This document shows, piece by piece, positions 2,620 through 32,150 of a stretch of 32,150 nt of DNA. Below the pieces are notes generated by a model that did no database searches, had not been told where the DNA came from, and saw nothing but the letters and a program-made list of their open reading frames with translations. Position 1 is the stretch's first letter. Every line of letters begins with the position of its first letter. The DNA comes from a virus: the IMG/VR virus record IMGVR_UViG_3300020469_000156, positions 1 to 32,150 of that record; one strand, given 5' to 3'. Both the position numbers and the translations under genes were made by a program.

Positions 2620-2923
2620 TAGTTACATAGACGGCAAGACAGCAGTACAAAAAGCTAACGCTGAGATAGCATTAAAGAAGGCTACCTCTGAAACTGATTG
2701 GGAACAGTCAGCTATAGAGGCCAGTAAGGATTCGTGGAAAGACGAGCTATGGACAGTAGTATTTGTAGCTATTCTTCTGATGAACTTCATTCCTTCTATG
2801 CAGGACGTAATGGCACAAGGCTTTGCTAATCTTGAAACCACACCGCTGTGGGTACAGTGGGGTATGTATGCAAGTATAGCTGCCAGCTTTGGCATTAGAA
2901 CAATGAGAGGATTTAAAAAGTAA
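2579..2923 (+). CDS. Holin-like protein (3TM-holin type)
   Basis: 114 residues. The N-terminus is a short Gly/Ala/Ser-rich segment (MIGGIVTAISGLASSYI). A helical polar region follows, with KDSWKDELWTVVFVAILLMNFIP at about residues 49-72, and a last hydrophobic stretch at about 91-107 (WVQWGMYASIAASFGI) before a basic tail. The ..SWKDE.W.. entry into a membrane helix and the W-rich end resemble the three-segment holins of gene-transfer-agent-like elements (Pfam GTA_holin_3TM, from memory). Its stop overlaps the start of the endolysin by one base. It is the more likely true holin because it directly precedes the endolysin. Confidence 0.65.
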   Translation: MIGGIVTAISGLASSYIDGKTAVQKANAEIALKKATSETDWEQSAIEASKDSWKDELWTVVFVAILLMNFIPSMQDVMAQGFANLETTPLWVQWGMYASIAASFGIRTMRGFKK

Positions 2924-3375
2924 TGGGTTATGTATTAGGCAAACGTAGTTTGCAAAGGCTAGGCACTGTAGATGACAGGCTTCAACGCATTGTTCAGTAT
3001 GCTATCACTGTAACTAAGCAAGACTTTTCTGTAATCTGTGGCATTCGCACCAAGTCTGAACAACGTAAGTTGGTTGCCTCTGGTGCATCGCAGACCATGA
3101 AAAGTAAACACTTGGATGGTTTGGCTGTTGATCTTATGGCTTACAATGGCGGCGGTAGATGGGAGCTTAATCTATACGACGAGATAGCTGATGCTATGGC
3201 AGAAGGTGCCAGCTTTGAAAAGGTGCCGTTAAGATGGGGTGCAGCTTGGCACATCAATGACATTGGTGGTTGTGATCTTACTGCCGAGGGTGCGATGAAT
3301 GCTTATATAGATTTACGCAGATCGCAGGGTCGCAGACCATTTATAGATGCGCCGCATTTTGAATTGATGATATAG
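2923..3375 (+). CDS. Endolysin, M15-family peptidoglycan peptidase
   Basis: 150 residues. The zinc-ligand motif SKHLDGLAVD at residues 61-70 supplies His63 and Asp70, and DAPHFEL at 143-149 supplies the third ligand, His145. This SxHxxGxAxD...H arrangement is that of the VanY / peptidase M15 fold, which includes phage L-Ala-D-Glu endopeptidases such as the T5 endolysin. There is no signal peptide, so it needs a holin to reach the wall, and holin-like genes lie directly upstream. It is the last gene of the rightward transcript before a hairpin terminator. The exact bond cut cannot be told from the sequence. Confidence 0.88.
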   Translation: MGYVLGKRSLQRLGTVDDRLQRIVQYAITVTKQDFSVICGIRTKSEQRKLVASGASQTMKSKHLDGLAVDLMAYNGGGRWELNLYDEIADAMAEGASFEKVPLRWGAAWHINDIGGCDLTAEGAMNAYIDLRRSQGRRPFIDAPHFELMI

Positions 3376-5081: not shown

Positions 5082-5411
5082 TTACCATGGCTTTCGTTCT
5101 ATTCCGTTTAGAACATTCTTTATGTTTTTTACTTTATAAAAGTGTGGGTATAATATTCTATGTTCCCTTCCTATGCTTCTATTATAAACTGGTCTAAACT
5201 CGTAAATAAGACTTGACTCAAAACACTCAGCTTTATCTTTATCTTTAAATTCTTGATAAATAATATGACCTCTTGCTGTACTTGCGTAAGGCTTTCTAGT
5301 TCTAAAGTGAGACTTTATTCTTTCTTCTAAGTTTTTAGACACACCAATGTAGTCTACATCAATGCCATATTTACCACGCATATCTGGTATAAAAGCATAA
5401 ACCCCTATCAT
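5082..5411 (-). CDS. GIY-YIG family nuclease
   Basis: 109 residues. GVY at 3-5 and YIG at 21-23 are followed by NLEERIKSH with the catalytic Arg31, then Glu65 in ECFESSLIYEF and Asn77 in FRPVYN. All expected GIY-YIG residues are present and the length equals a lone catalytic domain, without a separate DNA-binding domain. The start overlaps the exonuclease stop (ATGA) and no strong ribosome binding site is present. It is visibly AT-richer than flanking genes and sits between the exonuclease and the annealase modules, so it could be a recently acquired, possibly homing-type, gene. A repair or host-DNA-degrading role is the alternative. Confidence 0.82.
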   Translation of the reverse strand: MIGVYAFIPDMRGKYGIDVDYIGVSKNLEERIKSHFRTRKPYASTARGHIIYQEFKDKDKAECFESSLIYEFRPVYNRSIGREHRILYPHFYKVKNIKNVLNGIERKPW

Positions 5412-6208
5412 TGCTTTGCACTTTCTTTGCGTGTTGATATTCTAAGTGATCCGCGCTTGTCTCTGCGTATAGTTAACAAGTCACAGTACACTTCCCGTTC
5501 GTTATCTCCCACCATTTGCTTAAGACTTTTCTTGGCTAACTCAAACGATTTGGCATAGGCTTCGTTGCCAATGTAGTCGTGAGCTATAGATGTAAAGTGA
5601 TTGTCGCTGTTAGCATCACGCTTAATCATATCATCTACAGGTATGTTATCTATCTTCATAGTTTCTGGCTGGTCGTAACCAAGTGGCTCTGTATCTGTAT
5701 CTACATGATACCAAAATTGTTTGATCGCAGTCATCATAAGGTTAAAGTATGACTCGCTCCATGCAACGTGCGAACACTCCCATTTGTTGTTGCCAAAAAA
5801 AGCAGAGAGGAAGCATCCGTCTTTGCCAGACAGCTTCATGTAACACTGCAACTGTGGCATGTAATATTCAATCAACGCATCCATAGTGTTGTATGAATTG
5901 GTATGCTTGCACTCAACGATAGAATCACTACACATACCATCAATTGTACCCTTCATGGGTACGCCATCAACATTGCGTTGATATTCATATTGATGTTTAG
6001 TTATAAAGAAAGCACCGTCATCTGCTGGCATGTTTTCCTCAAACCACTGCATGTTGAATGACTCAGTGTAACTACCCATGCGTACCGCAAGGTTGTCGTT
6101 AAGATTAGGGCTAGGTATCTTGCCCGTCTTGATCTGCCATAGATCGTACCAATCTCCCTGCATAATTTTTACACAGTCAGACCCACCTATAAATCCTGTA
6201 CGTTTCAT
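5408..6208 (-). CDS. YqaJ-type viral recombinase exonuclease
   Basis: 266 residues from the ATG at 6208, preferred because GGAG lies six bases upstream; in-frame ATG (6220) and TTG (6229) starts exist. The N-terminus carries FIGGSD (residues 6-11), as in lambda-exonuclease/YqaJ nucleases. The PD-(D/E)XK core is GTIDG (Asp90) followed by IVECKHTN (Glu99, Lys101), and YYMPQLQCYM contributes the conserved Gln119. The family resects double-stranded ends to give 3' single strands for the annealing protein, here encoded three genes downstream. This pair would drive recombination-dependent concatemer formation. Confidence 0.88.
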   Translation of the reverse strand: MKRTGFIGGSDCVKIMQGDWYDLWQIKTGKIPSPNLNDNLAVRMGSYTESFNMQWFEENMPADDGAFFITKHQYEYQRNVDGVPMKGTIDGMCSDSIVECKHTNSYNTMDALIEYYMPQLQCYMKLSGKDGCFLSAFFGNNKWECSHVAWSESYFNLMMTAIKQFWYHVDTDTEPLGYDQPETMKIDNIPVDDMIKRDANSDNHFTSIAHDYIGNEAYAKSFELAKKSLKQMVGDNEREVYCDLLTIRRDKRGSLRISTRKESAKQ

Positions 6209-6231
6209 AACATTCTCCATTGTTATCAAGG

Positions 6232-9268: not shown

Positions 9269-10105
9269 TTACGCTAGTTCTAGCCATGACTTGTGCTTCA
9301 TGGCCTTAATGATGGCTGCTTCACGGATACGTCTCGCATTCTCTGGCGACTTTGCTTCGTCCGTGTGTGTAGCCCATGATGTTAAACAGTTATACAAAGC
9401 CCACTTGGTATTACCTAACTGCGCTCGTTCATTATCAAAGCCACCCAGTAGATTCTGTAACTGCCTGTCATTAAACTTAGCATGACTTGCCTTGTGTTGT
9501 ACGTTACATACAGTCTTTTTAAAGAAAGACTCTGCTTGTTCGGTAGTGACAGGTGTACTTCTGTATGCTTCCCATACTCCCTTGCTATTAAGAAACATTT
9601 CAAGACCATCAGCTATCTTATGAGCCGAGCTATCTACGCTTACGTTAGTCGTATGCTTAGCCCATGTCTTAGCTACAGTGTCGGCAGTAGTGCAGCCATT
9701 GAGACACCACAAACGAAAGCCTTCTGCTGATTGTTGAAAGGCCCAGCTACCATCATAGCTATTGTATGCTTGGACACGGTACTGAATGTAATCATTTACT
9801 TCTGGATCATCCAACATAATGTCGTTGAACAATACCTCAAGCCGCATCTTAGCGCCGTTGTCTGCAACGTGTGTCTTAACGCTGTAGTCTGAGCTAATGT
9901 CGCTCTTTTTGATTGAGTCCATGATTGAGTTGACCGCATCACTGTGCGTGATTGGTTTGTACTTAGACTTGTGAGTGCCAAGCGATTCACCTGTGTCAGT
10001 GCGTATTAGGTTACGCATCTTAGGTATCTCATTGCCACGCATGTCTAAGCATGGCTCCATGTCAATCGCAAAGTCCCAGTCTGTAGTGTTCATAGTATCT
10101 AGCAT
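9269..10105 (-). CDS. DUF932 family protein
   Basis: 278 residues from the ATG at 10105, preceded by GGAG six bases upstream; in-frame ATG codons upstream are possible. Features typical of DUF932 / phage-plasmid TIGR03299 proteins: GTHKSKYKPITHSDAV near the N-terminus, RLEVLFNDI, QAYNSYDGSWAFQQ, and FRLWCLNGCTT (about residues 131-141) followed by WAKHT. The molecular role of the family is unknown; it is common near replication and anti-restriction genes of phages and plasmids. It is the longest leftward gene and has a short non-coding leader (10106-10159) with a hairpin and a copy of the 10-base repeat. Confidence 0.8.
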   Translation of the reverse strand: MLDTMNTTDWDFAIDMEPCLDMRGNEIPKMRNLIRTDTGESLGTHKSKYKPITHSDAVNSIMDSIKKSDISSDYSVKTHVADNGAKMRLEVLFNDIMLDDPEVNDYIQYRVQAYNSYDGSWAFQQSAEGFRLWCLNGCTTADTVAKTWAKHTTNVSVDSSAHKIADGLEMFLNSKGVWEAYRSTPVTTEQAESFFKKTVCNVQHKASHAKFNDRQLQNLLGGFDNERAQLGNTKWALYNCLTSWATHTDEAKSPENARRIREAAIIKAMKHKSWLELA

Positions 10106-10159
10106 TTGATTCTCCATTTGATTGAGCGTGAGTGTCTGTGAGACACCCACTTTAGTATG

Positions 10160-19812: not shown

Positions 19813-20400
19813 ATGGCAAGCACAGCATCCGATAGCCCGATTGACATTTGTAGCCGCGCACTAATTCTTATTGGTGCAGAACCTATTACGTCATTTGATG
19901 ATGGAAACAATGAAGCACTTGTTGCTTCTAATATGTATGAGGATGTAGCCCAATCAGCTTTAGTTAATACACGGTGGCGCTTTGCAACGGATCAACTTGT
20001 ATTGAACCGACTTAGCGATGCACCTACTGGCAGATATGAAGCAGCATATCAAATGCCAAACAACTCACTTATGATCCACGCCTTAACGGTAAACGGATTT
20101 AACATTGAGTTTCAAACTTACAGTGACAATCTATTCTGTGATGCCGATGCTTCTGATGAAGTAGTGGCTGATTATACATACAGAGTTACCGAAGAGTATT
20201 GGCCTTCTTACTTTACAATGGCTGTTCAGTTTCAGTTGGCATCTGTATTTGCAGTATCATTAGCGCGTGATGGTAGTCTTTCTCAGCTTATGGATCAAAA
20301 GGGTGCAATGCTTATGGCTAAAGCCAGAGGTCTTGATTCACAATCGCAAACAACACGTAGGCTGGACACATCAAGATTTATCAGCAATAGGCGCAGCTAA
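19813..20400 (+). CDS. Tail tubular protein A, T7 gp11-like
   Basis: 195 residues (T7 gp11 has 196). DICSRALILIGAEPITSFDD (11-30), then EALVASNMYEDVAQSALVNT and RWRFATDQLVLN, are the conserved opening of this family, and VADYTYRVTEEYWPSYFTMA is the conserved middle. It forms the upper tail ring that docks on the connector. Translation may depend on the hairpin described just upstream. The stop overlaps the next start by one base. Confidence 0.92.
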   Translation: MASTASDSPIDICSRALILIGAEPITSFDDGNNEALVASNMYEDVAQSALVNTRWRFATDQLVLNRLSDAPTGRYEAAYQMPNNSLMIHALTVNGFNIEFQTYSDNLFCDADASDEVVADYTYRVTEEYWPSYFTMAVQFQLASVFAVSLARDGSLSQLMDQKGAMLMAKARGLDSQSQTTRRLDTSRFISNRRS

Positions 20401-23006
20401 TGCAGAAGGTACAGGTTCCGATAACTAACTTCCAATTCGGCGAGGTTAGTCCTTCGTTGTCATCCCGAACTGATACTGCTGTTTATACGGCGTCTGCTCA
20501 GAGAGTGGAGAATATGTTTATTCGCTCTGAGGGTGGGGTTATTAAACGCGCTGGCTTGCAAAATTTATACAAGTACACTGACATAACATACAACTCTGCC
20601 AAGACTCAGCAAGCTAGGTTAATGCCGTTTATCTTTTCGGATGACGAGCAATACATAGTTTCTATGGAGAATGCTAAGGTGCGGGTATTTATTATTGATC
20701 CGTCTACTGGTGCAGTGTCATTAACAGCTACACTTACTTCCGATGTTGATAGCGCAGCGTTACCTTTCTCTGATTCTTTTTTACATGAATACACTTTTGC
20801 CCAGTTAGGTGATGTACTATTTGTGTGTCATCCTTTGTTTATGCCAAGGCAGATTGTAAGAACGAGCCTTACTGCATTCCAAGTAGAAACATTTACGTTT
20901 GATACTCGGTCTGACAAAGAGCAGATTTACCAGCCTTACTATAACTTTCACAATGCGGGTGTATCTTTAACGCCTAGCGGAACAAGTAGTAGTATCACCT
21001 TAACCATTGGTGAGTTTAGCGCAGAGGCAGATGACGATGGTATTTCTGTATCGGCTGAAGTAGGTAATGCAGCTAATTTAGTTCTTGGTGGCGCGTTAGC
21101 ATCTAGTGGATCAGTTACATTTGTTTACGGTAGATTGGTTACTATCACATCTGGTGGTAATGATAGTGGTTTTGCATTTACTGTAACTGGCACAAATGTA
21201 GATGGCGATGCTCAAACTGAAGCTATTACTGGTGCAAATACTGGTGTAGCTACAGGAACTAAGTTCTTTAAAACTATTACACAAATTGCTGCTGCTGGTG
21301 ATCCCGCTGGAACAGTAAAGGCTGGCGTTACTGACAAAGCTGCTGTGCCTTATTTTGATACTACTGGTAGTCAATCTGGTGGCAACTATGCAAGCTCAAA
21401 GCATGTTGGAGTAACCTTACTTTATCATAAGTCGGAAATACTTATTACTTCTGTTCAGTCTGGGACTCAGGCCACTGGCACTGTGTTGGATAGTTTGTTT
21501 GTGCAGCTTAAAGTTAATGCTCTTAAAACAATTAGTGGCTCAGCAACTGTAGAAGTAACTCATGTTAATCATGGTATGAGGGTTGGGGATTCTGTCACAC
21601 TATCCGAATGTGCTGCTGTGGGTAATATTTCTACTGGCAATCTTAACGGTGCTAGAGTTATTACAGGCATCATAGATGATAATCATTATACCTTTACGGC
21701 TGGTGGTTCTGCTAACGCTTCTGTAGATGGGGGCGGTTCTCCCAAAGTAACATCTTCTGCACCTACTACAGATTGGGCAGAGCAATCATACTCTAGTCTT
21801 AGAGGCTTTCCATCTGCCATTACCTTTCATCAGAATAGACTTTGCTTTGCTGGCACAATAGCGCAGCCAGATACTATTTGGATGTCTAAGTCTGCATCTT
21901 ATTATAACTTTGATGTTGGCGATGCTAATGATAGTGATTCAATACATCTTACTGCTAGTGTTGGTGAGGTTCAGCAAATCAGGCACTTGGTTTCTAACAG
22001 AGACTTACAGGTGTTTACTGCATCTTCTGAAATGTATGTACCTGCATTTCAAGACAAACCTATTACACCAACTAACGCACAGGTTAGAAGGCAAACACCG
22101 TTTGGTAGTGATTCTATACGTCCACAGGTTTTGGATGGCGCTACTATCTTTGTGCAAGCTGGTGGCTCTATTGTGCGCGAGTATTTGTTTACAGATTCAG
22201 AGGAAGCCTACACCGCTGTTCCTGTGTCTTCTTTGTCTTCTCACTTAATAGATAACCCTGTAGAAATGAATACTTTTTATGGGGCTGTAGAGCGTTCTGA
22301 AAGTTATGTTTTTATTAGAAACGCATCTGGCAAGATGGCTGTGTTTAATTCCAACAGAGCGGAGCAACGTGCTGGCTGGGCTGAATTTACTAGCCAAGGA
22401 TTGTTTCACTCTACAGTTACTATAGATGATCGTGTGTTTGCTAACGTGGCCTTCCCGATGGGGAACGATACAACGAGGTATGTACTCTGTGAACTTAAAG
22501 CAGATTCTAACATGGATATGTCCAAGACCTATACCGCGACAAGTACGAACAATGGAATCTTCACTGTTTCATCAGACTTTGAAAACGGTGCTGTTGTTAA
22601 TGTTGTTAGCGGTAATAACTATATTGGTGAGTTTACTGTTTCTGGCGGCAATGTTGATGTCAGTGCTGTAGAGGGATTAAACACTGCAGAGATTGGTTAT
22701 AAGTTTGATGTTACTCTTAAGACCAATCCTATAGATACCAACACGCAAGCTGGCCCTGTGAGTGGTAAGATTAGAAGTCTTGCTAGTGTAATTGTTGATC
22801 TTAACTCTACGTTATCAATTAGTGTTAATGGCACTAACTTGGTTATTCGTCAGGTTAATGATGACTTATCTCAGGAACAGACTGCAGTTACAGGACGTAA
22901 AGAATTTAGATTGATGGGTTATGGCCGGACACCACAAGTAACTATTAGTCAATCAGCGCCGTTACCTTTACAGGTCAATGGCCTAATAGCGGAGTTAGTA
23001 TTCTAA
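20400..23006 (+). CDS. Tail tubular protein B, T7 gp12-like
   Basis: 868 residues, somewhat longer than T7 gp12 (794). The conserved N-terminus has NFQFGEVSPSLSSRTDTAVY and RSEGGVIKRAGLQ, and the propeller continues with LRGFPSAITFHQNRLCFAGT (about 467) and DTIWMSKSASYYNF. In between (about 180-450) sits an extra Gly/Thr/Ser-rich, beta-sandwich-like region. It ends in a small domain with VTHVNHGMRVGDSVTL, the FCCH-like domain seen in other phage tail proteins. It forms the tail nozzle and the fibre attachment site with tail tubular A. Confidence 0.92.
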   Translation: MQKVQVPITNFQFGEVSPSLSSRTDTAVYTASAQRVENMFIRSEGGVIKRAGLQNLYKYTDITYNSAKTQQARLMPFIFSDDEQYIVSMENAKVRVFIIDPSTGAVSLTATLTSDVDSAALPFSDSFLHEYTFAQLGDVLFVCHPLFMPRQIVRTSLTAFQVETFTFDTRSDKEQIYQPYYNFHNAGVSLTPSGTSSSITLTIGEFSAEADDDGISVSAEVGNAANLVLGGALASSGSVTFVYGRLVTITSGGNDSGFAFTVTGTNVDGDAQTEAITGANTGVATGTKFFKTITQIAAAGDPAGTVKAGVTDKAAVPYFDTTGSQSGGNYASSKHVGVTLLYHKSEILITSVQSGTQATGTVLDSLFVQLKVNALKTISGSATVEVTHVNHGMRVGDSVTLSECAAVGNISTGNLNGARVITGIIDDNHYTFTAGGSANASVDGGGSPKVTSSAPTTDWAEQSYSSLRGFPSAITFHQNRLCFAGTIAQPDTIWMSKSASYYNFDVGDANDSDSIHLTASVGEVQQIRHLVSNRDLQVFTASSEMYVPAFQDKPITPTNAQVRRQTPFGSDSIRPQVLDGATIFVQAGGSIVREYLFTDSEEAYTAVPVSSLSSHLIDNPVEMNTFYGAVERSESYVFIRNASGKMAVFNSNRAEQRAGWAEFTSQGLFHSTVTIDDRVFANVAFPMGNDTTRYVLCELKADSNMDMSKTYTATSTNNGIFTVSSDFENGAVVNVVSGNNYIGEFTVSGGNVDVSAVEGLNTAEIGYKFDVTLKTNPIDTNTQAGPVSGKIRSLASVIVDLNSTLSISVNGTNLVIRQVNDDLSQEQTAVTGRKEFRLMGYGRTPQVTISQSAPLPLQVNGLIAELVF

Positions 23007-23572: not shown

Positions 23573-26500
23573 ATGGCTGTAATTCGTCAGAGACAACAGG
23601 TTTTTAGCAAGCCAATCGGTGTCACTCGCATGGACACAGGCGAAGCAGAGTTGTGGAAAACAGTTAAGGCTGGTGCCGATCAGTTGACTTCTATTGCCTT
23701 TAGAGAAGGGCAAACCATTGCCGAGGAAACTGGGCGTGAGGCAGGTTTAAACGCACCTATGAATGAAGTGCTTGGGCTAAATCCAGAGTCAGGAAAAGTT
23801 GAACCTGTTTCTGCGCCTAGAGGTTTTGGTAGTATAGCTCGTAGGGCGTATGAAAGAGTTGTTGATGCTAGGTTTATGGATGAAGCAGATAGTCGTTTAA
23901 GGCTAAAAGCTAAAGAGCTTGCAAGTAAATACAAACGCAGTCCAACAGAGTTTGCAAACCAGATGAGTAATTTTATTGCTGAATCTGCAGATAAAACTGC
24001 TGATGGTAAATATAAAAATATCATCTTAGACAATGGTAAGAAGTATCTGTCTGAAATGCAGATAAATCTTATGGATCAAGCGCGATCAAGAGCAAGGGTA
24101 AGAGAAGCGGAACTTGCTAATTACAACTTGTTAGAAGGTGTTAGCTTTTCACGCGATGCTGCAGAGCAAGGTGACTATGGTTTAGCTGCAGAATTATCTC
24201 AACAACAAATTCAAAAAGCGCGAGACTTATATGATGCTGAATTAATAAGTTTAGCAGAATTAGTTACACATCAAACTCGTTATAAAACGGCTGTTTCTCA
24301 AGGCGTAATACAAGACATATTTACTCGCATTCCTGATGGATTGCAGCGTAAGGATTTTTTACTTCATCTAAGAACTGGTGGTGCAGATGGCTCAATGCCA
24401 CAAGTTTCATCAGATCAAAGTCTTGTTTGGGATTCTGAAAGGGGTCGTTTTATTAAACCTCTAAGCGCAGAAGATATTAATGCTGCTCGCCTTATACTTT
24501 TGCCAAGAATGTTGACAGATAGAGAATTTAGACAAGAAGCGTTTGGGACAATGATAGAAGCCTTAACGCCACTTGAAGAAATAGAATCTATGGCACAAGA
24601 GCTTGATGGCCTAGATAATGAGCAAAAAAGAAACAGAGCATTCTTAGATGATAATAATGCTGCAGATGTTTTGCGTTTTGCAGAATTATTAGATGCTAGA
24701 AAGTCTACTATTGAAGCCGTGGAAATTCAAAGGCTTAAAGATCAACAAGTATTAGAACATGCTAATGCAGCTAGAGTAATACAGCTTGAAACTATGCAAG
24801 ACAACGAAGCTTTTGGTGGCGATGCTTCTCAGTTCTTAGAGCGCATTTTAGCAAATGCACAAGGTAGTCCTGCTTTAGATATGGTTGTTGGTGGAGAAGG
24901 TCAGCCAACTGTATCTGATAGATTTGGTGGCGTGTATAACGCGCTTCAAGCTGCATCAGGTGCATTAAGTGATGAAGTTTTAGAGCGTATTGCAGGGTTT
25001 GAAAAAAGATTTAGGGATGGTGAGAAGGGTTATACTATTAGTAAATTAGCTGCAGATCGTCAAAGCGTTCAGCGATCTGCTGTTACTGCTTTACTTGATC
25101 TTGGCTTGGCAGATGGCAAATCTGAAAAACTATTAAGTGCTTTAAACGGCGATTCATCTCAAGGATTAACTACTGTGCAAGTTGCTATTGTGCAAGGAAT
25201 TAGGAGTAACGAAGCTACATTTGGCGACCTAAGTTATATTAATGAGTATATCAGTCAAAATAAATTAAGCGCTCTTGAAAAGAAACAAAGCAATTCTCTT
25301 AAGTTTCAAGCGGCTACATTGGGCAGCAATGCTATAAACAGTGGGCCTAGAGTTGGTTGGTCTGATGCTTACAATTCATTTCTTGATGAAGCTGGAAGGC
25401 TTGGGCTTGAAGAAGATGCATTAAGTGGCCCTGAGTTTGTAAGGCAACGTGATGCAATACGTATAGCTTGGTCTAAAAGTATTGTTGATAATAATTATTC
25501 TGATCTAACTGTATTAGAGCTTCAACATCTTAAAACTGCAGTTAAATCTAGGACTATTGATTCAAGTCTTAGTGACAAATCAAAAAGACTTGCTGCGGAA
25601 ATCAAGGCAATTAGTGACGAAGATTTAAATGTTGAAGCAATAACAGGTCATATTGATACTTTAATTAATGATAAACAGAAGGAAAACTCACGCCAACAGG
25701 CTGTAAATATTATAACTAACAGGGCTGTGCGTGGAGAAATGGGTTCTACTAAAGAAGAACGCAATGAAACTGCAATGTTTGTTGATGAAACTATTATCTT
25801 TAGTGTTCTTGGTGCTAAGGCTTTAGACTCAGATGATCCTATGGCTATGTCTATGGCTGTGTCAGAGGCTATGTTGTCTCCAAAATCAATGACACCTGAT
25901 GGTCAGGCAGGATTTGACGCTGTTACTGCATCAGATCAAGGAATGATTAGGCATCAAGTTCAACAAGGAATAATGCGCGGAGTTATTTCTAAAGGTTTTG
26001 TTGAGAATCTTAAGGGCATTGCTGTAGCTGGTCAGCAAAAATATACCTCTGATGAAGTTGCATTAACCATGCAGCACTTTGCTAATCTTGCTTTTTACAA
26101 AGATCGTAACGGTCAAGATTTAAATTTGTTAATGCAGTTTGAAGATATAATAGGCAAAGAAACTTTATCTAAATTAGAAGCAGCACATCATGCAAGTAAG
26201 TTGTTAGGCACAAACAATATGCAGGGCTTAATGCTGCAGATGGATGATAACGCGTTTAATCCAGAGTTTCAAAACAGGATGAAGGCTGAATTTCAAAATG
26301 GATTTGCCTTTATGGGCAAAAACGATGAAATGAAACTTTACTCAGGTGAAGCGAAAGATATGCTTGCTAACTCTGCTAAGTATTTGTGGATGGCTACAGG
26401 CGGCAATCCAGAGGCTGTAACTCAAAGCCTTAAGGCTATGTATGAAGAAAAGTTTGCTGATACTGATGGATTTGTTTTTGATGTATCTGCGCCAGAGGGT

Positions 26501-27046
26501 GTTAAAAGTAGGTTTGCACCTAGCATTGTGTTTCCTCAAGAGCCAGTAAGGGAAGCATTTTTAAATCATGTGGCTAGTGCACTTGCAAATAACACTGAGC
26601 ATCCTGTTACTAAAAAGCCCTATACATTTGGCGTTAATTCTGGCGGCGTTGCCTTTACTGTATTTGGTACTGACATTCCTTATGGCCCACGAAATAATAC
26701 TTTCCAAGCTGGGGAAGCATTTATTCATCCTATAGAAAAAAGCAGTGATGGAACTGTTTATTATCAAGCTATGGAAATGAATGAGTTTGGTGGTGTTCGT
26801 CCTGTTAGAACTAAAGATGGAAAGCCAATGTATTTCCATAGTAGAGAGCCATATCTAAACGACATGCGAAAACAATTAAGCCTACAAGAAAGCGCTGAAT
26901 CAGAAGTAATGACAAGATTAGTAACTAGCCAAAAAGCTAGAGAGGTTGAGCAAGGTGTTATAGAAGGTGCGCCAGCATTAGGTCGTAATTTAATTGAATC
27001 TGACCCCGCTTTAACAGAGGCACTAATGTCAAGGCGTAATCAATGA
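23573..27046 (+). CDS. Large internal virion protein, T7 gp15-like
   Basis: 1157 residues, larger than T7 gp15 (747). The ATG follows the previous stop with no gap. The protein is overwhelmingly helical, Ala/Glu/Gln/Leu-rich, without membrane segments or cysteine clusters (SRARVREAELANYNLLEGV; RKSTIEAVEIQRLKDQQVLE). A more globular C-terminal region (about 980-1110) contains HPVTKKPYTFGVNSGGVAFT and YGPRNNTFQAGEAF. Size, order and helical make-up fit the periplasm-spanning ejection tube protein. I see no enzymatic motif. Confidence 0.78.
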   Translation: MAVIRQRQQVFSKPIGVTRMDTGEAELWKTVKAGADQLTSIAFREGQTIAEETGREAGLNAPMNEVLGLNPESGKVEPVSAPRGFGSIARRAYERVVDARFMDEADSRLRLKAKELASKYKRSPTEFANQMSNFIAESADKTADGKYKNIILDNGKKYLSEMQINLMDQARSRARVREAELANYNLLEGVSFSRDAAEQGDYGLAAELSQQQIQKARDLYDAELISLAELVTHQTRYKTAVSQGVIQDIFTRIPDGLQRKDFLLHLRTGGADGSMPQVSSDQSLVWDSERGRFIKPLSAEDINAARLILLPRMLTDREFRQEAFGTMIEALTPLEEIESMAQELDGLDNEQKRNRAFLDDNNAADVLRFAELLDARKSTIEAVEIQRLKDQQVLEHANAARVIQLETMQDNEAFGGDASQFLERILANAQGSPALDMVVGGEGQPTVSDRFGGVYNALQAASGALSDEVLERIAGFEKRFRDGEKGYTISKLAADRQSVQRSAVTALLDLGLADGKSEKLLSALNGDSSQGLTTVQVAIVQGIRSNEATFGDLSYINEYISQNKLSALEKKQSNSLKFQAATLGSNAINSGPRVGWSDAYNSFLDEAGRLGLEEDALSGPEFVRQRDAIRIAWSKSIVDNNYSDLTVLELQHLKTAVKSRTIDSSLSDKSKRLAAEIKAISDEDLNVEAITGHIDTLINDKQKENSRQQAVNIITNRAVRGEMGSTKEERNETAMFVDETIIFSVLGAKALDSDDPMAMSMAVSEAMLSPKSMTPDGQAGFDAVTASDQGMIRHQVQQGIMRGVISKGFVENLKGIAVAGQQKYTSDEVALTMQHFANLAFYKDRNGQDLNLLMQFEDIIGKETLSKLEAAHHASKLLGTNNMQGLMLQMDDNAFNPEFQNRMKAEFQNGFAFMGKNDEMKLYSGEAKDMLANSAKYLWMATGGNPEAVTQSLKAMYEEKFADTDGFVFDVSAPEGVKSRFAPSIVFPQEPVREAFLNHVASALANNTEHPVTKKPYTFGVNSGGVAFTVFGTDIPYGPRNNTFQAGEAFIHPIEKSSDGTVYYQAMEMNEFGGVRPVRTKDGKPMYFHSREPYLNDMRKQLSLQESAESEVMTRLVTSQKAREVEQGVIEGAPALGRNLIESDPALTEALMSRRNQ

Positions 27047-30000
27047 TAACACAACTTCCTACTACTAACTTTACAGAAAACTTTGAGCCTGAGTTTAAGC
27101 AATCTATAGCTTTTTCAGATACAGTAGGTGCAATGAATAGTATTGCGTATCAGCCGTTTATTGATGCGTATAAGGCTAGAAAAAAATACGGATATAAAGT
27201 TAATCAAGATTACAATGCAGCAGATAACATTGGTGAAGAGTACCAACCATATTTCAACACTTTGATTTTTGCTCAGAACGAACAACATATGGCTGATATG
27301 AAGTCTGGTATAGATGACAGTATAGCTAATCGCAGAGTATTAGCCAATTCAAGTGCTTGGGCTGTAGCTGGTGCTGGATTATTTGATCCTATTAACTTAA
27401 TGCCTTTGCCTTTTGGTGGCGCTGGTATTGGTATAGTTAAATCTGCATTAAGAACTGGTGCCGGAGTTGGTGCATTACAAGCAGGTTTAGAGGTATCTAA
27501 ATCCCCTTATGATCCTGTTCAGTCAATGGCAGAGGGCGTTAGCAATACTGCTATGGCTGCTGCATCTGGATTGCTTTTTGGTGGAGCATTTAGTGTACCT
27601 TTAAATAGACGCATTGACGCAGAGGCTAGACACAATAAAGCTCATATAGAAGCTGTAGAACGTCAACAAAACTTTGAAGATTTAGCATCACTTACAACCG
27701 AAGAACTTGCTGCAGCTAGATCAAATCCAATACGCAAACAGTTTGAAGATGATAATACAGATAGTTTAAAAGCAGAAGCTACACGATTGCGTGAGTCTGC
27801 TGTAAGTACACAAGGCCCAATGCCTATGGGTGCAGCAGAGCAAGCAAGACTAAAGGCAGTTACTTCTGAGCTTGCTGTAAGAAATTTAGATACTGTAGGC
27901 AAAGACCCTTACGCTATAGCTGCTGGTGGTACTGGCCCTATCTACCTTTCTACGCCTATACGCAGGGTGTTAGCCGCGTCTGTACCTGATTCAGTCAAAG
28001 AGCGTATGAGCCGTATGGCGTCTGACTCTGGATTGCTGCAAAACCTACACGTTATGGGCAAGACGCTAGGTGCTTCTGTGTATCAGCGCATGGCACCGCT
28101 TAAAGGCGAATGGGTTAAGGCTGATGCAAAGCTAACTGAGTTATGGGGTTTATCTATAGGCACAGACATTAAGAAACGTGCTGGCATGAACCTTACAGAA
28201 AAAACAGTTGCTCTTGAGTCTAAGTTTGGCAGCGGTCAACGACAAACTTACAATGACTTTTTAGTTGAGATTAACAGGCAGCGTATATTTAAAGAAGAAC
28301 CTAAAACTGAGGTAGAGGTTGCAGCGCGTAAAGTGCTGGATGATTTCTATGATGTATGGGGGCAACGTTTACAAGATACGGGGCTTATAGGTAATAAGAA
28401 TAAAATTGTTGCAGACATTGTTAAGGTTGATGGTAGGATTGCTGACCTTGAGGCTAGGTTAGCCAAGATAGAATCTAACCCTAAGTTTAAGTACAAAAAG
28501 ATGACTGTTGCATCTATTCGCAGTCAAATGACTAGAGCCACCAAACGTAAAGAAGCATTGCAGGATTCTTTAGATGCTATTGCTGACGGCGATACAAAAG
28601 TTAATCCCGCTAACGAAGACTTCTTTAGCCCTAGATACTTTGACCATGCTACAGTTAGAGCAAGACGCGAAGAGTTAGAGGCTATTATATCTAAGTGGTA
28701 TATGGATAATCCATTTATCTACGTTAAAGATAAAAGTGGTAAGGTAGTAAAGCAAAGATTAGACAGTAATAAAAAAGCAACTGACGCTAGGGCTAAGGCT
28801 ACTGTAGACAGAATACTTAACGAAACTACAGAAGAAGCCGAGGATTTCTTTGGCTCTGGCAAATCAATGCACTTAAAGCACAGAGGCTTAGACATACCAA
28901 ACAAGTTGGTTTGGGAGTTCATGGTTCAGAACCCTATAGATACTATGAAGTCATATGTACACAAAACAGGTGGACGTTATGAGTTTGCCAAGATGTTTGA
29001 CGGGCAAGACTTTGACGAAATGCTAGAAGATGTACGCCTAGAAATGATGGAGGCTGGGCATTCTCAGCGTGACATTAACAAAGTAGTTAGAGACTTTGTG
29101 CATATGTATGACCGTGTAGTTACTTCGGTTATGAAGACTGACCCTGATCGTTGGGATAACAAGGCTGCATTTGTAATGAAAGAAGCGGCACAGCTTAACT
29201 ATCTTGGTAGTGCTGGTCTTTCTGCTATTCCTGACTTTGGCCGCATTATTATGGAGCATGAGATAGGTGATGTTCTTAAGGGATTGATGGAGATACTATC
29301 TAACGAGCGTGTTAGATTAACTAGCGAAGAAGCTAACTTTGCTGGTGAAGCCTTGGAAATGAATCAAGGCAATGTTCACATTCGTATGGTTGATGACATT
29401 AGCAATAACCCTAGAGCTACAACTAAGTATGACATGATGAAGAATGCGTTTTATATTGCTAACGGATTGTCGCCTATTACTCAGTTTGCCAAGACACTAG
29501 ACTCAATCATTCGCGGCCATGTTATAATCAAGGATTCTATAGCATGGAAGAACGGTACTATCTCTAAGCAGAACAAAGAGTATCTGCTGCGCTATGGCAT
29601 TAGCAAAGAGATGGCATTGAACATTGCTGTTGCTCCATATCAAGTTACTGAAAAAGGGTTTTACTTACCTAACACTAAAGATTGGGAAAACGCTTATGCG
29701 TTTCCTGACACTGGTGAGTATATGCCTAATGCTAAGATTACCTATGGCGATACTGGCAGATATAGAAAAGACGGTAGTTATGTTGCAGCGGCAGTAGACT
29801 ACGAGAAGAAAACTATTAAGTTTGACGTTGATTACATTAAGAGCACATTTGACGAAAAGCCTTGGACACAGCCAAAGGTAGAGGGTGTAAAGCCACTAGC
29901 AGAAAATGCGTTTGAAACACCGCAGCAATGGGCTAACTTTGTTATGATGCACGAAATTATGCACACAAGGTTTCAGCCAGAAGATTTAAAACTTAATCTT

Positions 30001-30828
30001 GGCAAGGGCAAAACTTATGACCGCAATAATCCAAAGCACTATGCCAAGTACGAAAACAAAATTAATGACCTTGCACTTAAAGAACACAACAAGCAGCCCA
30101 AAATAGAAGAAGAAACTCTAACAGCCTTTAGGTCTGCGCTTTCTAGCGGAATACTTAACACAATCATGATGGGTACACCCGCTGACAAGCCTATCTTAGT
30201 GGACGGTGTGGCGTACGTTCCTATGAATGTGGCACGGATGTTTGGAATGAAGGAAGATGCGCGTGTAAGGGGCTACTCACGCATTGAGAGTGGCCTTCTA
30301 GGGCTTCCCTTTCAGTTCTATAGCTACGCATTGGCAGCAACGAACAAAGTTGCAGGGTCATTTATGCAAGGGCAGATGAAAAATAGGTGGGGTGGATTAG
30401 CTACAGCTATGGGCGCTGGCTATCTATCGGTAATGATTAAGACGCCTAACTTTGCTTGGGACAACATGGATATGGAGGATCGCTTTGCTAGGGCATTTGA
30501 TCAGAGTGGTGTTATGGCTCTATACAGTGATTTGTTTTACACTGCTATGTCTACTTCTCTTGCCCTTGGTGGTCCTAATATTAGCGGTGGAATGCTTAAC
30601 CCGAAGTTCCCGCCGCGTGAGGGAACGATGGGAATGGTAGATGCAGCTACAGGTGTTGGCGGTGCTGGCGTTAGTATAACTACAGATTACGCAGAAGGCG
30701 TTGGTCAGTTTCTTAACGGTGAATACGGTGAGGGAGCTAAACAAATTATGCGCTCGTTGCCTTTTGCTAGAATGTGGTTTTGGAAAAATCAAATGAATGA
30801 GGCTACGAATGCTATATCCCGCTTTTAA
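27043..30828 (+). CDS. Giant internal virion protein with HEXXH metallopeptidase motif, T7 gp16-like position
   Basis: 1261 residues (T7 gp16 has 1318). Two hydrophobic stretches near the N-terminus (about 105-185) precede a long helical body. No transglycosylase motif of T7 gp16 is recognised. Instead MMHEIMHTRF carries HEIMH at 970-974, and Glu1004 in YENKINDLALKE, 30 residues on, could be the third zinc ligand, as in ImmA/IrrE-type peptidases. The last 200 residues contain Gly-rich hydrophobic segments, which may contact membrane. It is the last internal protein, ejected with the DNA; its stop overlaps a repeated 15-base element. Confidence 0.8.
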   Translation: MITQLPTTNFTENFEPEFKQSIAFSDTVGAMNSIAYQPFIDAYKARKKYGYKVNQDYNAADNIGEEYQPYFNTLIFAQNEQHMADMKSGIDDSIANRRVLANSSAWAVAGAGLFDPINLMPLPFGGAGIGIVKSALRTGAGVGALQAGLEVSKSPYDPVQSMAEGVSNTAMAAASGLLFGGAFSVPLNRRIDAEARHNKAHIEAVERQQNFEDLASLTTEELAAARSNPIRKQFEDDNTDSLKAEATRLRESAVSTQGPMPMGAAEQARLKAVTSELAVRNLDTVGKDPYAIAAGGTGPIYLSTPIRRVLAASVPDSVKERMSRMASDSGLLQNLHVMGKTLGASVYQRMAPLKGEWVKADAKLTELWGLSIGTDIKKRAGMNLTEKTVALESKFGSGQRQTYNDFLVEINRQRIFKEEPKTEVEVAARKVLDDFYDVWGQRLQDTGLIGNKNKIVADIVKVDGRIADLEARLAKIESNPKFKYKKMTVASIRSQMTRATKRKEALQDSLDAIADGDTKVNPANEDFFSPRYFDHATVRARREELEAIISKWYMDNPFIYVKDKSGKVVKQRLDSNKKATDARAKATVDRILNETTEEAEDFFGSGKSMHLKHRGLDIPNKLVWEFMVQNPIDTMKSYVHKTGGRYEFAKMFDGQDFDEMLEDVRLEMMEAGHSQRDINKVVRDFVHMYDRVVTSVMKTDPDRWDNKAAFVMKEAAQLNYLGSAGLSAIPDFGRIIMEHEIGDVLKGLMEILSNERVRLTSEEANFAGEALEMNQGNVHIRMVDDISNNPRATTKYDMMKNAFYIANGLSPITQFAKTLDSIIRGHVIIKDSIAWKNGTISKQNKEYLLRYGISKEMALNIAVAPYQVTEKGFYLPNTKDWENAYAFPDTGEYMPNAKITYGDTGRYRKDGSYVAAAVDYEKKTIKFDVDYIKSTFDEKPWTQPKVEGVKPLAENAFETPQQWANFVMMHEIMHTRFQPEDLKLNLGKGKTYDRNNPKHYAKYENKINDLALKEHNKQPKIEEETLTAFRSALSSGILNTIMMGTPADKPILVDGVAYVPMNVARMFGMKEDARVRGYSRIESGLLGLPFQFYSYALAATNKVAGSFMQGQMKNRWGGLATAMGAGYLSVMIKTPNFAWDNMDMEDRFARAFDQSGVMALYSDLFYTAMSTSLALGGPNISGGMLNPKFPPREGTMGMVDAATGVGGAGVSITTDYAEGVGQFLNGEYGEGAKQIMRSLPFARMWFWKNQMNEATNAISRF

Positions 30829-30882: not shown

Positions 30883-32150
30883 ATGACTATTAGTTTAGCG
30901 CAAAACGCAGCGCGTGTATCTTACTCTGTAAGTGAGGGCGCTACACAAACATCGTTTACTGTATCATTTGAGTTTTTTGATGATGCTGATCTTAACGTAT
31001 ATGTAGATGGTACTTTAAAAAGTATTAGTACTCACTATACTGTAAGCGGAGGCAGCGGCTCTACTGGCGCAGTAGCTATATCAGTTACAGGAGCTACTGG
31101 CGGTAGTACTGTAGTTATTACTAGAGATATTGCGCTTGCTAGAACGACTGACTTTCCTACGTCTGGATCGTTTCAAATTGCCACGCTAAACACTGAGCTA
31201 GATCGCTTTACTGCTATTGCTGCCGACCTTAAAGATTCTTCTAATCGTTCATTGCAGCTAACAGATTTTGATACTGCAGTATCTCTTGTACTTCCTGATG
31301 TTAATAGTCGTAAAGGGACTGTTCTTGGTTTTAATGCAAGTACTGGTGCTGTTGAAGCAGGTCCAAACATTACTGCTGTTCAATCTTTAGCAGATGTTAC
31401 TACATCCATTAGCCTTCTTGGTACAAGTGATGCAGTTAGCGATATGAACACGTTAGCTACAACAACTATTGTAAACAATATGTCTACTGTAGCTGGTATT
31501 AGTTCTAATGTTTCTACTGTGGCAGGTATAGCAAGTAATGTAACTACTGTAGCTAATGATGCTACTGATATTGGTGCTGTTGCAGGTAAAGCTACTGAAA
31601 TAGGTCGGCTTGGAACAAGCGATGCTGTTGCTGATTTGGCCGTTTTAGGTACAGCTGACGTTGTTTCAGATATGAATACATTAGCTTCAGCTGCAATTGT
31701 TGAAGACATGAACTTGCTGGGAACATCTGCAAACGTCACGGCTATGGGCGTGCTGGGAACATCTGCAAACGTCACGGCTATGGCTGCACTTGCTGGCTCT
31801 AGCAGCGTTGAAATCCCTGCGTTGACCGTTAAAGCAGGTGATGGGGCAGACGGCAACTTTTTTCTAATAGCAGATAATAGCGATGATAATGGTGATGATT
31901 GGCTCATTGCCGCCAAACACGATCCATTAAAAACGCTGCAGATAACTAATAATTTTGGCACGTCAGGCGGCGTTATGCTGACGCTGACAAACTCCACAAA
32001 CCTTACATCTGAAAGCACTGCAGCATTTGCTGGTACTGTTGAGGTTGGCAATTCTGTGAAGTTTGAAAACTCAGTAAATGGTAGCTATGTCGGGTCAGTC
32101 TCAGTAAAATCTGGAAGCACAAGCAACGCCGCACGAACAATCACATTGCC
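30883..32150 (+). CDS. Tail fibre protein, T7 gp17-like N-terminus (runs off the window end)
   Basis: 422 codons are read without a stop; AAAGGAG precedes the ATG. Joined to base 1 the frame ends in PYA and TAA at 8-10, giving 425 residues. The N-terminal 125 residues (SYSVSEGATQTSFTVSFEFF; LNVYVDGT; TVVITRDIALARTTDFPTSG; LNTELDRFTAIAADL) are the T7 fibre domain that binds the tail. The shaft (about 165-305) is built of short repeats such as LGTSDAV.DM and STVAGISSNV, which suits a beta-helical or triple-stranded shaft. The end (KSGSTSNAARTITLP) is a common tip motif. Further tip proteins follow at 22-864. Confidence 0.88.
   Translation, partial: MTISLAQNAARVSYSVSEGATQTSFTVSFEFFDDADLNVYVDGTLKSISTHYTVSGGSGSTGAVAISVTGATGGSTVVITRDIALARTTDFPTSGSFQIATLNTELDRFTAIAADLKDSSNRSLQLTDFDTAVSLVLPDVNSRKGTVLGFNASTGAVEAGPNITAVQSLADVTTSISLLGTSDAVSDMNTLATTTIVNNMSTVAGISSNVSTVAGIASNVTTVANDATDIGAVAGKATEIGRLGTSDAVADLAVLGTADVVSDMNTLASAAIVEDMNLLGTSANVTAMGVLGTSANVTAMAALAGSSSVEIPALTVKAGDGADGNFFLIADNSDDNGDDWLIAAKHDPLKTLQITNNFGTSGGVMLTLTNSTNLTSESTAAFAGTVEVGNSVKFENSVNGSYVGSVSVKSGSTSNAARTITL
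31715..31783 (+). repeat. Exact 33-base tandem duplication in the fibre shaft
   Basis: Bases 31715-31747 are identical to 31751-31783, a period of 36 bases or 12 codons (LGTSANVTAMGV then LGTSANVTAMAA). The identity at the third codon positions, unlike the other diverged shaft repeats, points to a recent in-frame duplication that lengthens the shaft. Confidence 0.85.

What the first reader, a model, noticed from the sequence alone, without database searches (positions are those of the whole stretch)
29938..30063. HEXXH metallopeptidase motif inside the largest internal virion protein
HEIMH (residues 970-974), preceded by hydrophobic MM and followed 30 residues later by Glu1004 in YENKINDLA, is a zinc-peptidase signature similar to ImmA/IrrE. 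T7 gp16 carries a lytic transglycosylase at its other end, and I see none here. The protein may cut a host envelope or cytoplasmic protein as it is ejected ahead of the genome.
Basis: partly seen in the sequence, partly recalled or inferred. Interest (0 to 1): 0.68.

Follow-up and report, generated by a model that had tools for sequence, protein, structure and literature searches.

The report
Zinc-protease module in phage ejection protein
This marine T7-like phage carries, inside the big protein it pushes into the host ahead of its DNA, a swappable zinc-protease domain that relatives gain, lose, replace and load with further inserts, which suggests that the DNA-injection machine also delivers enzymes that act on the host.

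Summary
HEIMH is at residues 970-974 and Glu1004 is in place, inside the 1261-aa ORF 27043-30828, a T7 gp16-like ejection protein in T7 gene order. The motif is not chance. It sits in a domain of about 140 aa inserted into the gp16 core at one site (residues ~883-1024). In 72 related viral contigs found with patterns outside the domain, this slot holds an HEXXH domain in 35, a decayed copy in 3, and nothing in 34. H, E, H and E are invariant in 36 diverse active copies. AlphaFold2 gives a confident model (pLDDT 94, pTM 0.88): three strands, an HEXXH helix and a Glu helix. Structure matches with a family name are mostly IrrE/SprT-like zinc peptidases, but weak; no solved structure matches significantly. 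Pfam MPTase-PolyVal is reached only below its cut-off. Phages with ~98% identical cores carry different cassettes, and two relatives carry the domain elsewhere in the protein. The slot maps near T7 gp16 residue 1067, in the part thought to enter the cytoplasm. Best reading: a virion-delivered zincin effector that cuts a host cytoplasmic protein. The substrate is unknown; self-processing is the main rival. New variant of the known polyvalent-protein metallopeptidases (N4 vRNAP, P1 DdrB).

The parts
27043..30828 (+). T7 gp16-like ejection (internal virion) protein, 1261 aa, without the N-terminal transglycosylase
   Evidence: phrog_342 'internal virion protein with endolysin domain' E 2.2e-25, profile from position 221; T7 gene order gp11-gp12-gp14-gp15-gp16-gp17
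29689..30114 (+). inserted zincin-like metallopeptidase cassette, residues ~883-1024, between core motifs GFYLPNTKDW and TAFRSALSSGILNTIMMGTPADKP
   Evidence: slot is 64-75 aa in 34 relatives and 190 aa or more in 38; the flanking core aligns on both sides
29734..29823 (+). three-stranded sheet of the domain (residues 898-901, 916-919, 924-927)
   Evidence: AlphaFold2 model, pLDDT 94.4, pTM 0.88
29920..29970 (+). active-site helix, residues 960-976
   Evidence: AlphaFold2 model
29950..29964 (+). HEIMH: His970 and His974 (predicted zinc ligands), Glu971 (predicted general base)
30031..30093 (+). glutamate helix, residues 997-1017, YENKINDLA
   Evidence: AlphaFold2 model
30052..30054 (+). Glu1004, predicted third zinc ligand
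   Evidence: invariant in 36 active copies; Asp in decayed L066
23006..23572 (+). gp14-like internal virion protein
   Evidence: phrog_418 E 9.8e-7
23573..27046 (+). gp15-position internal virion protein, 1157 aa
   Evidence: position between gp14 and gp16 as in T7; no family hit
19813..23006 (+). gp11-like and gp12-like tail tube proteins (19813-20400, 20400-23006)
   Evidence: phrog_394 E 1.9e-34; phrog_376 E 1.9e-107
30883..32148 (+). gp17-like tail fibre, N-terminal part (runs off the window)
   Evidence: Phage_T7_tail E 0.0068; phrog_1640 E 9e-8

Best explanation
Residues ~883-1024 are a small zincin metallopeptidase domain (three-stranded sheet, HEXXH helix, Glu helix; zinc predicted on His970, His974 and Glu1004; Glu971 as base) inserted into the core of the gp16-like ejection protein. 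It is packed in the virion core, leaves with gp16 through the portal and tail, refolds on the cytoplasmic face of the inner membrane as part of the gp16-C hub, and cuts a host protein in the first moments of infection, most plausibly a defence or regulatory protein. Shown here by sequence and model: the domain, its conservation, the insertion site and the cassette turnover. Inferred: zinc binding, activity, cytoplasmic location (from T7) and a host target.
For: H, E, H and E invariant in 36 diverse active copies. dN/dS over the HEXXH-to-Glu half is 0.01-0.08 against near relatives, close to the gp16 core. AlphaFold2 pLDDT 94.4, pTM 0.88, with the motif residues in the two expected helices. Viral-structure hits with a family name are mostly IrrE-, SprT- or metallopeptidase-like (ranks 7, 10, 11, 14, 25, 26, 28, 30, 32), and the most probable PDB hit is the minimal zinc peptidase selecase (prob 0.60). 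MPTase-PolyVal matches below threshold in 4 of 31 domain-bearing records, each inside the gp16 ORF, and in none of 10 domainless records. The cassette changes fast on a fixed core: 96-100% identity on the flanking stretches, 42-78% in the cassette, window vs L011. Decay of one copy goes with a new HELTH copy in L005-L008, L011 and L016. Presence/absence needs about 6 changes on the core tree, at least 4-5 forced by starred branches. The slot maps near T7 gp16 residue 1067; T7 gp16-C (411-1118) is placed in the cytoplasm (PMC8954989).
Against: No substrate and no activity data. No significant match to a solved structure (best E 0.83). Family matches are below their cut-offs. Profile comparison with the N4 vRNAP domain is not significant (prob 3.9%), though the same test also fails between N4 and an ArdC-type MPTase (2.4%). 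About half of the relatives do without the domain. T7 topology is borrowed across a very distant homologue; the family profile does not even match T7 gp16 directly.
Confidence: 0.55

Rival explanations
1. Self-processing: the domain cuts gp16 or its partners gp14/gp15 after ejection (or during assembly), to free gp16-C or take the channel apart so that the membrane reseals.
For: Autoprocessing is the main role proposed for MPTases in polyvalent proteins, with P1 DdrB as example (PMC5512222). The T7 channel disassembles after DNA entry (PMC11784390).
Against: About half of the relatives lack the domain, so the channel works without it. The cassette is exchanged while the flanking gp16 sequence stays at 96-100% identity, with no sign of a co-changing cleavage site. 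N4 vRNAP, the closest mechanistic parallel, is packaged uncut (PMC5512222).
Confidence: 0.25
2. Dead or structural insert: the domain folds like a zincin but works by binding (a plug, spacer or docking surface), not by catalysis.
For: Some copies have lost the motif yet keep the fold region (L022 REIMH, L066 REVMV, Hodr KEVYR).
Against: H, E, H and E persist across about 46% mean identity. Where the first copy decayed in L005-L008, L011 and L016, a new copy with HELTH is present.
Confidence: 0.1
3. Virion maturation protease that trims capsid or scaffold proteins during assembly.
For: It is packaged in the virion with the other head proteins (inferred from gp16 homology).
Against: Absent from half of the relatives; swapped without matching change in the core. 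No such role known for gp16 (own knowledge).
Confidence: 0.05
4. Chance motif in a large helical ejection protein, with no domain.
For: HEXXH arises in 1.4% of shuffles of this protein, and T7 gp16 has an unrelated HERLH.
Against: Conserved inserted domain with a confident independent fold.
Confidence: 0.02

Closest known systems
Zincin-like MPTase domains of polyvalent proteins (Iyer et al. 2017, PMC5512222; Pfam PF18818 MPTase-PolyVal)
   Same: HEXXH helix, then a Glu helix, after a three-stranded sheet; carried in the middle of large proteins delivered with phage DNA; variable inserts between the two helices; several copies in one protein; company of ART and lysozyme domains
   Different: Carrier is a T7 gp16-like ejection protein; 'gp16', 'T7-like' and 'ejection' do not occur in that paper's main text. 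Scores below the family cut-off. No clear helix before the sheet in the model
N4 virion RNA polymerase, HExxH domain C1 (Schitoviridae; PMC12633501)
   Same: HExxH domain in a protein ejected into the cell as part of a DNA-ejectosome
   Different: Fused to an RNA polymerase of ~3500 aa; sequence relation not significant here
ImmA/IrrE (Peptidase_M78) and SprT-like metallopeptidases
   Same: Small HEXXH zincins; best named structure matches
   Different: Stand-alone regulators or repair proteases; here an inserted domain of a virion protein; matches below cut-off
T7 gp16
   Same: Position in the structural operon and family phrog_342
   Different: T7 has an N-terminal transglycosylase and an empty slot near residue 1067; this protein has the reverse

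Membership tests
T7 gp16-like ejection protein | sequence match to the gp16 family | tested here: met
   phrog_342 E 2.2e-25 for the window protein; T7 gp16 matches the same family over its whole length
T7 gp16-like ejection protein | syntenic place after gp14 and gp15, before the tail fibre | tested here: met
T7 gp16-like ejection protein | N-terminal lytic transglycosylase | tested here: not met
   protein starts at profile position ~221; no Pfam hit. Relatives L013 and L017 carry a lysozyme/pesticin-type domain instead, so the enzyme domain is variable in this family
zincin metallopeptidase (HEXXH + Glu) | HEXXH and a downstream Glu, conserved | tested here: met
zincin metallopeptidase (HEXXH + Glu) | sheet followed by HEXXH helix and Glu helix | tested here: met
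   AlphaFold2, pLDDT 94.4
zincin metallopeptidase (HEXXH + Glu) | fold match to a solved zincin | tested here: inconclusive
   no E <= 0.001 in the PDB; highest-probability hit is selecase, prob 0.60, E 0.88
zincin metallopeptidase (HEXXH + Glu) | zinc binding and proteolysis | not testable with these tools
   needs bench work
MPTase-PolyVal (PF18818) | score over the curated cut-off | tested here: not met
   best 16.3 bits against 27.5; window copy has no hit
MPTase-PolyVal (PF18818) | part of a multidomain protein delivered with phage DNA | tested here: inconclusive
   carrier is gp16-like by homology; delivery itself not tested
Peptidase_M78 (ImmA/IrrE) | score over the curated cut-off | tested here: not met
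   no hit for the window copy; best E 0.042 in 3 of 36 copies
N4 vRNAP HExxH domain | profile-profile relation | tested here: inconclusive
   prob 3.9%; the positive control N4 vs ArdC-type also failed at 2.4%

The most novel reading that the evidence does not exclude
The loop near T7 gp16 residue 1067 is a general effector slot of T7-like ejectosomes: marine podoviruses load it with interchangeable zinc proteases, some carrying further nested modules that look like ADP-ribosyltransferases, and so inject fast-evolving counter-defence enzymes into the cytoplasm before any phage gene is expressed.
Probability: 0.4. Interest if true: 0.82.

Novelty: new variant of a known kind. Interest (0 to 1): 0.62.

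Why it matters
Ejection proteins of T7-like phages are studied as DNA conduits. Here the conduit protein itself carries an exchangeable enzyme at a site that should lie in the cytoplasm after ejection. If it cuts a host protein, podoviruses would act on the host before transcription starts, and cassette exchange between phages with nearly identical cores gives natural matched pairs for finding the substrate. The slot is also an easy landmark for finding further delivered enzymes.

Tried and rejected
PDB structure search with a first 186-aa model (pLDDT 79) found nothing; the tighter 131-aa model with 36 sequences was far better but still gave no significant PDB match. Profile search of PDB sequences gave no zincin. 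hhalign against N4 and ArdC-type domains lacks power, since its positive control fails too. A scan of 84,980 bacterial and archaeal genomes found no relative of the domain. The window copy finds no cultured phage; a relative's copy finds only Pelagibacter phage Hodr, whose copy is decayed and sits elsewhere. Alignment of the family profile to T7 gp16 failed, so the T7 site was mapped in a multiple alignment and is approximate. Nested inserts of L047/L061, L012 and L119 look like ADP-ribosyltransferases by eye; only L012 has a weak Pfam ART-PolyVal match (E 0.11-0.14), so this is not claimed as shown. Two scans failed on out-of-frame references and were repeated in part. Positive selection was considered: dN/dS is below 1 everywhere, so the diversity comes from exchange, not from visible point-wise positive selection.

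Full report
OBSERVATION. The ORF at 27043-30828 (+, 1261 aa) holds HEIMH at residues 970-974 and Glu1004 in YENKINDLA. HEXXH turns up in 1.4% of shuffles of the protein, so the motif alone proves little; T7 gp16 has an unrelated HERLH at 559.

WHAT THE PROTEIN IS. The order gp11, gp12, gp14, gp15, gp16, gp17 is that of T7. The window is a 32,150-base virus record, probably incomplete, since the tail-fibre gene runs off its end.

THE MOTIF LIES IN AN INSERTED DOMAIN. A scan with patterns from the gp16 core, outside the domain, gave 72 loci in which the site can be read. Between the core motifs LARYNI and GTPADKP there are 64-75 residues in 34 of them, and 190-387 in 38 (tallied by hand). Of the 38, 35 have HEXXH and 3 are decayed (L022 REIMH, L066 REVMV with YDN, L046). 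The best-80 limit and the query, which has the domain, bias this sample. The core aligns on both sides. On a tree of the core, presence and absence need about 6 changes, at least 4-5 forced by well-supported branches (quick tree, long branches present).

CONSERVATION. A domain-based scan gave 80 loci. In 36 nonredundant active copies, 13 columns are invariant and include H, E, H and E (decayed copies left out beforehand). With all copies, 30 of 34 representatives at 80% clustering keep the four residues, at 46% mean pairwise identity. dN/dS of the two-helix half against L002, L003 and L012 is 0.01-0.08, as low as or close to the core.

CASSETTE TURNOVER. L011 is 96-100% identical to the window protein on both sides but 42-78% across residues 851-1050. 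In L005-L008, L011 and L016 the first copy has lost its motif (NKEIL) and a second copy with HELTH and YELRIDQNA follows. L012, L047/L061 and L119 carry nested inserts within the domain, which look like ADP-ribosyltransferases by eye; support is only a weak Pfam match for L012. L058, L040, L041, L043, L044 and L045 carry charged helical inserts. In L154 (active, residues 631-726) and in Pelagibacter phage Hodr (decayed, 262-363) the domain sits elsewhere in the protein. So it behaves as a mobile module, not as a fixed part of the DNA channel.

FOLD. AlphaFold2 on 36 sequences gives pLDDT 94.4 and pTM 0.88: strands 898-901, 916-919 and 924-927, helix 960-976 with HEIMH, helix 997-1017 with Glu1004. 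This is the layout described for polyvalent-protein MPTases (PMC5512222), except that no clear helix precedes the sheet. In the viral structure library the significant hits are four large unnamed phage proteins of 990-1325 aa; below significance, most hits with a family name are IrrE-like, SprT-like or metallopeptidases. In the PDB nothing is significant; the highest-probability hit is selecase, a minimal zinc peptidase (prob 0.60, E 0.88), with anthrax lethal factor entries lower down.

FAMILY. MPTase-PolyVal matches 4 of 31 domain-bearing records inside the gp16 ORF, below the cut-off, and none of 10 domainless ones (a fifth record has a separate stand-alone MPTase). Of 36 copies, 5 match MPTase-PolyVal (best E 0.0058) and 3 Peptidase_M78 (best 0.042). 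The window copy matches neither. I therefore call it a zincin-like domain close to the MPTase-PolyVal group, not a member of that Pfam family. hhalign against the N4 vRNAP domain aligns HEIMH with HELVH but is not significant, and neither is its positive control.

MECHANISM. By multiple alignment the slot lies near T7 gp16 residue 1067 (approximate; no direct match). T7 gp16-C (residues 411-1118) is modelled as a cytoplasmic hub after ejection (PMC8954989; PMC11784390). By that analogy the protease would be delivered to the cytoplasm at the start of DNA entry. Fast exchange on an unchanged core fits an effector with changing host targets better than self-processing, which would need a matching cut site and would be missed in the many relatives without the domain. 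N4 vRNAP carries a comparable domain and is packaged uncut (PMC5512222). Zinc binding, activity, location and substrate are all inferred.

NOVELTY. Metallopeptidases in phage-delivered proteins are known (PMC5512222, PMC12633501). Six full-text searches turned up no report of one in a T7 gp16-like ejection protein; most subscription papers are not in that library. Verdict: new variant of a known kind.

Noticed in passing
window 27043-27942 (gp16 residues 1-300): A second variable region: stretches of the N-terminal 300 residues are only 44-78% identical between phages (window vs L006, L008) whose cores are about 98% identical.
   Followed up: partly
L013:3852-4350 and L017:4020-4480: Relatives carry an N-terminal lysozyme-like (E 3.6e-4) or pesticin-type (E 2.8e-35) domain on the gp16-like protein in place of T7's transglycosylase.
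   Followed up: partly
L047, L061, L012, L119: inserts within the zincin domain: Nested inserts of ~90-240 aa with features reminiscent of ADP-ribosyltransferases, at different points of the domain.
   Followed up: partly
L159:386-1291 (-): The virus record of L154 also encodes a stand-alone MPTase-PolyVal protein (133.7 bits), with relatives in about 20 other viral contigs.
   Followed up: partly
window 2923-3375 (+): Small Peptidase_M15-like protein (E 3.7e-6), a likely endolysin or murein peptidase.
   Followed up: no
window 5408-6229 (-) and 9269-10150 (-): YqaJ-like recombinase (E 4e-9) and DUF932 protein (E 5.6e-18) on the minus strand.
   Followed up: no
T7 gp16 residue 559 (L192): T7 gp16 has a HERLH of its own, outside the slot: a warning against reading HEXXH alone.
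   Followed up: no
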